A DNA stretch of 55,342 bases from Gammaproteobacteria bacterium (GTDB lineage: Bacteria > Pseudomonadota > Gammaproteobacteria > QNFE01): NCBI GenBank assembly GCA_003645455.1, contig QNFE01000009.1, forward strand, positions 1-55,342, read 5' to 3'. A program made the translations under genes and the position numbers. Shown in pieces: positions 26,217 through 28,318 of the stretch. The notes under the pieces are model-generated. The model did no database searches. It was not told the origin of the DNA and was given only the letters and a program-made list of their open reading frames with translations. The number at the start of each line of letters is the position of its first letter. Within the stretch, counting starts at the first letter, position 1.

Positions 26217-26955
26217 TGATCTGTTATTAAGATATAATAGTTCCATAATGCTGCCAGAGATTGATATAAAAGGGCAACAAAAACTCACCCAAAGTAAAGT
26301 TGTTATTATGGGGCTTGGCGGTTTGGGTTCTCCTGTGGCTTTATATCTATCCTCAACTGGGATAGGGAATTTGACTTTTGTAGATTTTGATAAGGTAGAC
26401 ATTACGAACTTACAAAGACAAATAATCCATTCAACTGATGATATAAAAAAAAATAAAACCATCTCTGCGCGCGAACAAGCCTTAAAAATAAACCCAGATA
26501 TTAAGATAAATTGCATTGATAAAAAATTAAACCCCCAAGAATTAAATAATTTATTCAAAACAGCAGATATTGTCGTAGACTGCACTGATAATTTTGCCAG
26601 CAGGTTTGCTATCAATGCGGCCTGTGTGCAGAGCAAAACACCGCTTGTAAGTGCCGCTGCTATAAGATTTGAGGCACAAATAAGTGTGTATCGTGCGGAC
26701 TTGCCAAATAGTGCTTGTTATAACTGCTTATATGCCATCAGCAAAGATGAGAGAGAAAACTGTGCAGAACAGGGCATTATACCGCCTTTGGTTGGCATAA
26801 TGGGCTCGATGCAAGCTTTGGAGGTTATTAAAGTTTTATTAAATATCGGCAAGTCTTTGCAAAATAAACTATTAATTTTTGATGCCAAAAATACTAATTT
26901 TAGAGTTATGAATCTTAAAAAAGATGAAAATTGTCCCACTTGTGGCAACAATTGA
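26209..26955 (+). CDS. moeB: ThiF/MoeB/HesA family adenylyltransferase
   Basis: E1-like enzyme of 248 residues that would adenylate the C-terminal glycine of a small sulfur carrier such as MoaD or ThiS. The nucleotide loop is MGLGGLGSPVALYLSSTGIG, followed by VDFDKVDITNLQRQIIH. Catalytic Asp is in DIVVDCTDNFASRF. A structural zinc site is formed by CYNCL (about 170) and CPTC (C-terminus). The protein ends there and lacks a rhodanese domain, which may be why a separate rhodanese gene is in the operon. Whether it serves MoaD or ThiS is open. Confidence 0.85.
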   Translation: MDDDLLLRYNSSIMLPEIDIKGQQKLTQSKVVIMGLGGLGSPVALYLSSTGIGNLTFVDFDKVDITNLQRQIIHSTDDIKKNKTISAREQALKINPDIKINCIDKKLNPQELNNLFKTADIVVDCTDNFASRFAINAACVQSKTPLVSAAAIRFEAQISVYRADLPNSACYNCLYAISKDERENCAEQGIIPPLVGIMGSMQALEVIKVLLNIGKSLQNKLLIFDAKNTNFRVMNLKKDENCPTCGNN

Positions 26956-26973
26956 GAATGGATAATTAAAAAA

Positions 26974-27086
26974 ATCCGTTATAACGAGGCAAACGGATAA
27001 AACTTTTAAGCACGGAAAATTCCCCTCCTATGGAGGGGTGGCACGAAGTGGCGGGGTGGTCTATGGCAAAACGGATAAAACTTTTA
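26974..27086. repeat. Mixed repeat gap after moeB
   Basis: Between moeB and the next gene an 18-bp direct repeat (AAACGGATAAAACTTTTA at 26991-27008 and 27069-27086) brackets a GC-rich insert. The insert carries the palindrome CCCCTCC-TAT-GGAGGGG (27022-27038) followed by TGGCACGAAGTGGCGGGGTGG, a repeat style I know from intergenic DNA of many bacteria. The first part (ATCCGTT 26974-26980 with AACGGAT 26992-26998) could also fold as a weak terminator for the sulfur operon. Confidence 0.6.
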
Positions 27087-27486: not shown

Positions 27487-28071
27487 GTGAAGCACGATTT
27501 TTTAAAAGCAGTTACTGTTGTAGTTATTGGCATTATTTTATCATCTTGTGGGTGGTTTGATAATAAAAATACAACAGAACTTCAGCTCCAAGGCACAACA
27601 TTAGATGCTAAAACTAATTTAATCTGGAAGCGGTGTAGCGCGGGGCAAAAGTGGAATGGTAAAACTTGCACTGGCAAAGCAAAAAAAATGAAATGGCAAG
27701 AGGCACAAGATTATGCTAAATCTCATAAATTCGCAAGTAAATCAAACTGGCGAGTTCCCACAATAAAAGAGTTAAATACTTTAATTTATTGCTCTAATGG
27801 CAAAAAATTAAAATATGAAAAAGATGGTTTTTATCTCATAAAATCCGAAGGTAGTTACGGATGCAAAAGCGACACTCGTGGTAATTATCAACAACCTACT
27901 ATAAATACAACAATATTTCCTAACACACCTGCCTACACTTACAGTTTCTGGTCGTCCTCGCCGCATTCCCCAGGGTATGCATGGAGGCTGCACTTCAGCA
28001 ACGGCTTTGATTTTTACAGTTACCGTACCTCTGCTCTCTATGTTCGTTTGGTTCGTGATTCTGCTAATTGA
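27487..28071 (+). CDS. DUF1566 (Lcl C-terminal-like) lipoprotein, possible DGR target
   Basis: A 194-residue protein starting at GTG. It has a lipoprotein signal with lipobox LSSC, then a DUF1566-type C-type-lectin-like fold: LDAKTNLIWKRCSAG, KMKWQEAQDYAKSH, NWRVPTIKELNTLI and the end FWSSSPHSPGYAWRLHFSNG...LYVRLVRDSAN. The conserved WSSS...AW...NG...VRLVR frame is where retroelement-diversified proteins vary. Codons 174-185 all end in T or C, and the last 111 bases are about 51% G+C by my count, unlike the AT-rich first half. The lipid anchor would display the domain on the cell surface. No reverse transcriptase lies in the window. Confidence 0.8.
   Translation: MKHDFLKAVTVVVIGIILSSCGWFDNKNTTELQLQGTTLDAKTNLIWKRCSAGQKWNGKTCTGKAKKMKWQEAQDYAKSHKFASKSNWRVPTIKELNTLIYCSNGKKLKYEKDGFYLIKSEGSYGCKSDTRGNYQQPTINTTIFPNTPAYTYSFWSSSPHSPGYAWRLHFSNGFDFYSYRTSALYVRLVRDSAN
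27946..28056 (+). other. Putative variable region (VR) of a diversity-generating retroelement target
   Basis: This is the 3' end of the DUF1566 gene, codons 154-190. It stands out by base composition: 57 of 111 bases are G or C, and the last 63 bases contain only nine A. Twelve consecutive codons (174-185) end in T or C, the pattern left when AAY codons of a template repeat are randomised at A positions. The invariant-looking edges are FWSSS and YVRLVR. No template repeat or reverse transcriptase is visible nearby, so it would have to be served from elsewhere, or the resemblance is accidental. Confidence 0.45.
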
Positions 28072-28092
28072 GAATTAAAAATTAAAAAAACC

Positions 28093-28290
28093 CGTCATGG
28101 CACAGGCGGACGGCAAAAAAAGAATCCCGTCATTGCGAGTGAGCCTGCGAACGAAGCAATCTCGTCGTGGTATACGGACACCATAAGAGATCACTTCGCT
28201 ATGCTCGTGATGACGACATTAAAAAGAGATAGTCACGGCAGTATAGTTGCTTTGTGTTCTTATTTTTCTCCGTCCGCCTGTGCCATGACG
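28093..28290. repeat. Nested palindromic element with 21-bp perfect inverted ends
   Basis: The outer arms are perfect 21-bp inverted repeats: 28093-28113 (CGTCATGGCACAGGCGG...) and 28270-28290 (...CCGCCTGTGCCATGACG). Inside sits a family A element, 28128-28215, with ends CGTCATTGCGAG and CTCGTGATGACG. One palindromic repeat thus appears to sit within another. The element fills the gap between the DUF1566 gene and mnmA. mnmA starts 28 bases after it, so its promoter may lie within the element. Confidence 0.75.
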
Positions 28291-28318
28291 AGATTCTTTT
28301 TTCTAATAAAACAATAAA

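What the first reader, a model, noticed from the sequence alone, without database searches (positions are those of the whole stretch)
27946..28056. DUF1566 lipoprotein ends in a DGR-like variable region with no reverse transcriptase nearby
Seen: the last 111 coding bases are about 51% G+C in an AT-rich gene, the final 63 bases hold only nine A, and codons 174-185 all end in T or C. Known: diversity-generating retroelements rewrite A positions of AAY codons in C-type-lectin-like targets, many of them surface lipoproteins. Inference: this is a target diversified in trans from a distant reverse transcriptase and template repeat, or a frozen former target.
Basis: partly seen in the sequence, partly recalled or inferred. 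Interest (0 to 1): 0.75.

Follow-up and report, generated by a model that had tools for sequence, protein, structure and literature searches.

The report
Surface lipoprotein with frozen-looking variable region
A common kind of bacterial surface protein ends in a stretch that looks as if it was once rewritten by a known mutation-making element (a DGR), but no working element was found in this genome, so it is most likely a leftover or an ordinary family member and not an active diversity generator.

Summary
27946-28056 is 51.4% G+C in a 37.6% gene. Third-codon-position G+C is 21/37; the maximum in 5,372 windows of the same length from the same genome is 20. The protein is a Lcl_C/DUF1566 lipoprotein, best fold match the Legionella Lcl C-type-lectin-like domain.

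The 'target in trans' reading is not supported. The 98.4%-complete draft has one reverse transcriptase, retron-type. A-tolerant template searches of two of the four tails found only the genes themselves. An Avd search was empty, but its control was silent too. Paralogue tails differ most at third codon positions, opposite to shared-template DGR targets. The same methods recovered a true DGR in a class relative.

Best reading: one of four DGR-shaped but machinery-less C-type-lectin-like proteins, probably a frozen former target (precedent: Treponema denticola). An ordinary Lcl_C gene that never had a DGR remains a serious rival.

The parts
27487..28071 (+). DUF1566/Lcl_C lipoprotein gene, 194 codons, GTG start
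   Evidence: ORF; PF07603 residues 36-190, E=4.4e-31
27538..27549 (+). lipobox LSSC (residues 18-21), predicted lipidated Cys21
   Evidence: read from the translation; no lipoprotein predictor was run
27592..28056 (+). Lcl_C domain; predicted C-type-lectin-like fold
   Evidence: PF07603 match; AlphaFold2 mean pLDDT 77, best PDB match Lcl C-terminal domain 8q4e, E=5.4e-4
27946..28056 (+). variable-region-like segment FWSSSP...YVRLVR, high G+C, A-poor
   Evidence: composition against codon-usage simulation; hypervariable between the genome's four paralogues
27991..28047 (+). run of 19 consecutive NNY codons (169-187), DGR-like codon signature; no K, Q, E, M or W in it
   Evidence: codons listed; statistics

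Best explanation
An outer-membrane lipoprotein presenting a C-type-lectin-like Lcl_C (DUF1566) domain whose last ~20 residues form the ligand-binding variable face. This genome has four such proteins (C9 = this one, C14, C20, C21). Their tails carry the codon signature left when adenine-rich AAY template codons are rewritten (nearly all NNY; no Lys, Gln, Glu, Met or Trp), but the assembled genome has no recognisable DGR machinery and the tails have drifted apart at third positions. Most likely they are frozen former DGR targets, or genes acquired already diversified, now fixed binding proteins. Shown: domain, paralogues, codon signature, absence of a DGR-type RT in the assembly, absence of a template for two tails. 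Inferred: surface location, ligand binding, DGR history.
For: Four paralogues with conserved frame FWSS-P...YVRLVR and hypervariable positions between. 23 of 25 free codons in the four 16-codon tails end in T/C against 13.7 expected, P=3.6e-5; three paralogues alone 15/17 against 9.6, P=0.005; zero K/Q/E/M/W in 64 residues against 21.6% genome-wide. Upstream codons and C-termini of other genes show no such bias. C9 and C14 keep the strongest signature and highest GC3 while C21 and C20 are nearer genome-typical GC3, as expected of tails decaying to different degrees. Sole RT is retron-type with LPQGG and YADD motifs. No template for C9 or C14 tails. Positive control in class relative G032: DGR-type RT (VGNLTSQ) plus template/variable pair with 7 adenine mismatches and 0 others. 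Precedent: target genes in T. denticola isolates lacking RT and TR (PMC4891356); DUF1566 is a leading DGR target domain (PMC4159848, PMC6642488).
Against: Pairs of tails differ most at third positions in five of six comparisons (C9-C21 11/8/15, C9-C20 13/15/21), so they are not recent products of one template. A milder T/C-ending excess also occurs in 23 Lcl_C tails from other genomes (169 observed, 146.7 expected), so part of the signature may be general to the family. No template remnant exists to prove DGR history. C9's high GC3 in its framework codons (154-168) is not predicted by adenine rewriting itself.
Confidence: 0.5

Rival explanations
1. Ordinary Lcl_C adhesin with no DGR history: the exposed tail evolves by duplication and positive selection for aromatic, Ser, Asn, Asp and His contact residues, whose codons happen to end in T/C and be A-poor.
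For: The domain is common: 71 of 369 class genomes match by protein search. Of 56 genomes searched, 15 have it, while among the RTs inspected in that set only one showed a DGR-type motif. Lower A and slightly higher G+C in the tail is family-wide: A lower in 39 of 42 tails. Third-position differences dominate between own paralogues.
Against: Residue choice does not explain the synonymous T/C preference at free codons (30/33 against 17.4 in 19-codon tails; 23/25 against 13.7 in the strictly variable part). Tails from other genomes average 2.0 K/Q/E/M/W per 16 residues; these four have none. C9 lies outside the range of all 42 other tails in G+C and GC3 shift.
Confidence: 0.36
2. Active DGR target in trans: RT and template lie on a missing or unbinned piece of the genome, or on a plasmid or prophage.
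For: The genome is a draft of 83 contigs, 98.4% complete; remote targets are documented (PMC7517822). C9's tail is compositionally the freshest looking.
Against: No DGR-type RT in the assembly; no template within 3 mismatches for C9 or C14; one shared template would leave third positions nearly identical, which is not seen. Plasmid, phage and viral-contig searches with the segment, the gene or its 3' end were empty.
Confidence: 0.08
3. The tail was brought in by recombination with a higher-G+C Lcl_C gene, from another species or another paralogue (cassette exchange), explaining the sharp G+C rise.
For: GC3 in the segment exceeds every other window examined. C9's tail is closer in DNA to C21's (34 of 111 differences) than to C20's (49 of 111), although C20 is its nearest full-length paralogue.
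Against: No donor found in the relatives held, plasmids or phages; the C9-C21 likeness is modest, and C20 has merely lost the usual YAW motif.
Confidence: 0.06

Closest known systems
Lcl C-terminal domain of Legionella pneumophila (PF07603, PDB 8q4e)
   Same: Same Pfam family; best structural match of the predicted model; C-type-lectin-like, binds sulphated glycosaminoglycans as a trimer (PMC11162425).
   Different: No collagen-like repeats here; short lipoprotein leader; ligand unknown; only 19% identity over the aligned fold.
DGR variable proteins with DUF1566 domains (PMC4159848, PMC6642488)
   Same: C-terminal hypervariable NNY-coded tail between conserved frame residues; some are lipoproteins.
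   Different: No DGR RT or template found in the assembled genome; paralogue tails not related by adenine-only changes.
Target genes of Treponema denticola isolates lacking core DGR (PMC4891356)
   Same: Variable-region lipoprotein genes kept in genomes without RT and TR, read there as remnants.
   Different: There the history is supported by related isolates that still have the DGR; here no close relative was available.

Membership tests
Lcl_C / DUF1566 (PF07603) | Profile match above gathering score | tested here: met
   108 bits against cut-off 34.9
Lcl_C / DUF1566 (PF07603) | C-type-lectin-like fold | tested here: met
   Predicted model's best PDB match is Lcl-CTD 8q4e, E=5.4e-4, TM 0.57 by target; model confidence moderate
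Active DGR target | DGR-type reverse transcriptase in the genome | tested here: not met
   Single RVT_1 match, retron-type; draft 98.4% complete
Active DGR target | Template repeat identical except at adenines | tested here: not met
   A-tolerant 60-base patterns of the C9 and C14 tails with up to 3 mismatches hit only themselves; C20 and C21 patterns not run genome-wide
Active DGR target | Avd accessory protein | tested here: inconclusive
   PF22296 gave no hit, but the control genomes were silent too
Active DGR target | Variation confined to first and second positions of NNY codons | tested here: not met
   Among own paralogues the third position varies most (31 of 39 columns against 20 and 20); strain-level test not possible
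Former (frozen) DGR target | NNY codon signature beyond amino acid content | tested here: met
   23/25 against 13.7 expected, P=3.6e-5
Former (frozen) DGR target | Related strain or species in which the same gene is a DGR target | not testable with these tools
   No other held genome in its genus or family

The most novel reading that the evidence does not exclude
A dispersed set of four DUF1566 proteins (one lipoprotein, one apparently secreted, two without an evident signal peptide) is still diversified in trans by an unassembled or unrecognised element. G047, a class relative with 25 DUF1566 matches, has tails that in several pairs differ mostly at first and second codon positions although neither a DGR RT nor a template was found there, which could hint at an unrecognised enzyme or donor.
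Probability: 0.05. Interest if true: 0.75.

Novelty: new member of a known kind. Interest (0 to 1): 0.3.

Why it matters
If frozen, it shows that DGR-made binding faces can be kept as fixed genes after the machinery is gone, and that a simple codon test (pyrimidine-ending excess at free codons) can flag such relics without a template. If ordinary, it warns that G+C rise, A-poverty and T/C-ending codons in DUF1566 tails are not enough to call a DGR.

Tried and rejected
Template search by plain BLAST and by A-tolerant pattern: only the genes themselves and paralogues. Local template scan over held own contigs: only A-rich low-complexity matches with 24-27 adenine mismatches and a paralogue framework match. 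Phage, plasmid and viral-contig searches with the segment, the gene or its 3' end: nothing. PDB sequence search: nothing. Genome-contig relatives: distant, many of them matched only in the N-terminal half of the domain. Considered and rejected: general C-terminal codon bias (575 against 577 expected); pure amino acid composition; the retron RT as a DGR RT (motifs and families).

Full report
What is there. The gene at 27487-28071 (GTG start, 194 codons) encodes a protein with a lipobox (LSSC, residues 18-21) and a PF07603 Lcl_C/DUF1566 domain over residues 36-190. It lies between a small membrane-protein ORF and a gene that by its sequence (my reading of the translation) is mnmA, a tRNA thiouridylase. 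An AlphaFold2 model (mean pLDDT 77, pTM 0.73) has as its best solved match the C-terminal domain of Legionella Lcl (8q4e, E=5.4e-4), a C-type-lectin-like glycosaminoglycan binder (PMC11162425). The genome has three more copies: C20 (57% identical over nearly the whole length), C21 and C14 (a different N-terminal half).

Observation. The segment is unusual even after amino acid content is allowed for: G+C 51.4% against 40.8 +/- 2.6%, A 15 against 22.9 +/- 2.7, GC3 21/37 against 11.3 +/- 2.6, and no other 37-codon window of 82 ORFs reaches 21. High GC3 is concentrated in codons 154-173; the NNY run is codons 169-187. The homologous tail of C14 also has 19 NNY codons in a row, the longest run in a scan of 33,045 codons; C20 has 14 and C21 12 (the GTG-started C9 gene was not in that scan and its run is read).

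Is it a DGR signature? The tail boundaries were chosen after looking at the sequences, so these P values are somewhat optimistic. The bias is absent just upstream (88 observed, 81.9 expected) and at C-termini in general (575 against 577). It is what rewriting of AAY template codons leaves behind. A milder form exists in the family at large: in 23 tails from other genomes 169 against 146.7, in the 18 tails of G047 158 against 118.6, and A is lower in 39 of 42 tails.

Is there a DGR? The only reverse transcriptase in the assembly (G000:C8:12721-13320 within a 935-residue frame) has LPQGG and YADD motifs, and its best-matching families are retrons. The bAvd model gave nothing, but no control genome rang, so that says little. 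The approach does find real DGRs: in class relative G032 the same RT family search led to a VGNLTSQ-type RT with a template/variable pair differing at 7 adenines and nowhere else over 60 bases.

Are the paralogues products of one template? Not recently. C9 against C21 differs at 11, 8 and 15 first, second and third positions, C9 against C20 at 13, 15 and 21; third positions vary in 31 of 39 columns. The exception is C14 against C21 (17/8/14).

Conclusion. What remains is a four-member set of DGR-shaped Lcl_C proteins without machinery. Target genes without RT and TR are known in Treponema denticola isolates (PMC4891356), and DUF1566 is among the commonest DGR target domains (PMC4159848, PMC6642488), so the preferred reading is a frozen target (0.5). 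An ordinary Lcl_C gene with no DGR history is close behind (0.36), because part of the signature is family-wide and third-position differences are large. No strain comparison was possible: the genome is the only one held for its genus and family.

Noticed in passing
G000:C8:12568 onward (locus L123; RT part at C8:12721-13320, L005): Retron-type reverse transcriptase in a 935-residue open frame: about 280 residues of RT followed by some 600 residues or more with no Pfam match in the part scanned; possibly an unusual retron or RT-fusion defence protein.
   Followed up: partly
G047 (loci L088-L099, same class): 2.0-Mb genome with 25 DUF1566 matches, many near contig ends; several tails differ mainly at first and second codon positions, as in DGR targets, but no DGR RT or template was found.
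   Followed up: partly
window 28084-28299: Imperfect 37-nt inverted repeat enclosing a GTCATTGCGAG-type repetitive element directly downstream of the gene; 12 GTCATTGCGAG-like sites in the window against 0.3 expected.
   Followed up: no
window 26950-26982 and 28066-28098: 33-nt direct repeat, 85% identical, flanking the small membrane-protein ORF and the DUF1566 gene; could mark a mobile or duplicated block.
   Followed up: no
L106 (G032:C203): DGR with RT (VGNLTSQ motif), template near 2538 and variable region near 155, used here as positive control.
   Followed up: yes
L001 and L002 (G000:C14 and G000:C21): Two DUF1566 paralogues share a ~110-residue N-terminal half with no evident signal peptide and no Pfam match, so they may act inside the cell.
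   Followed up: no
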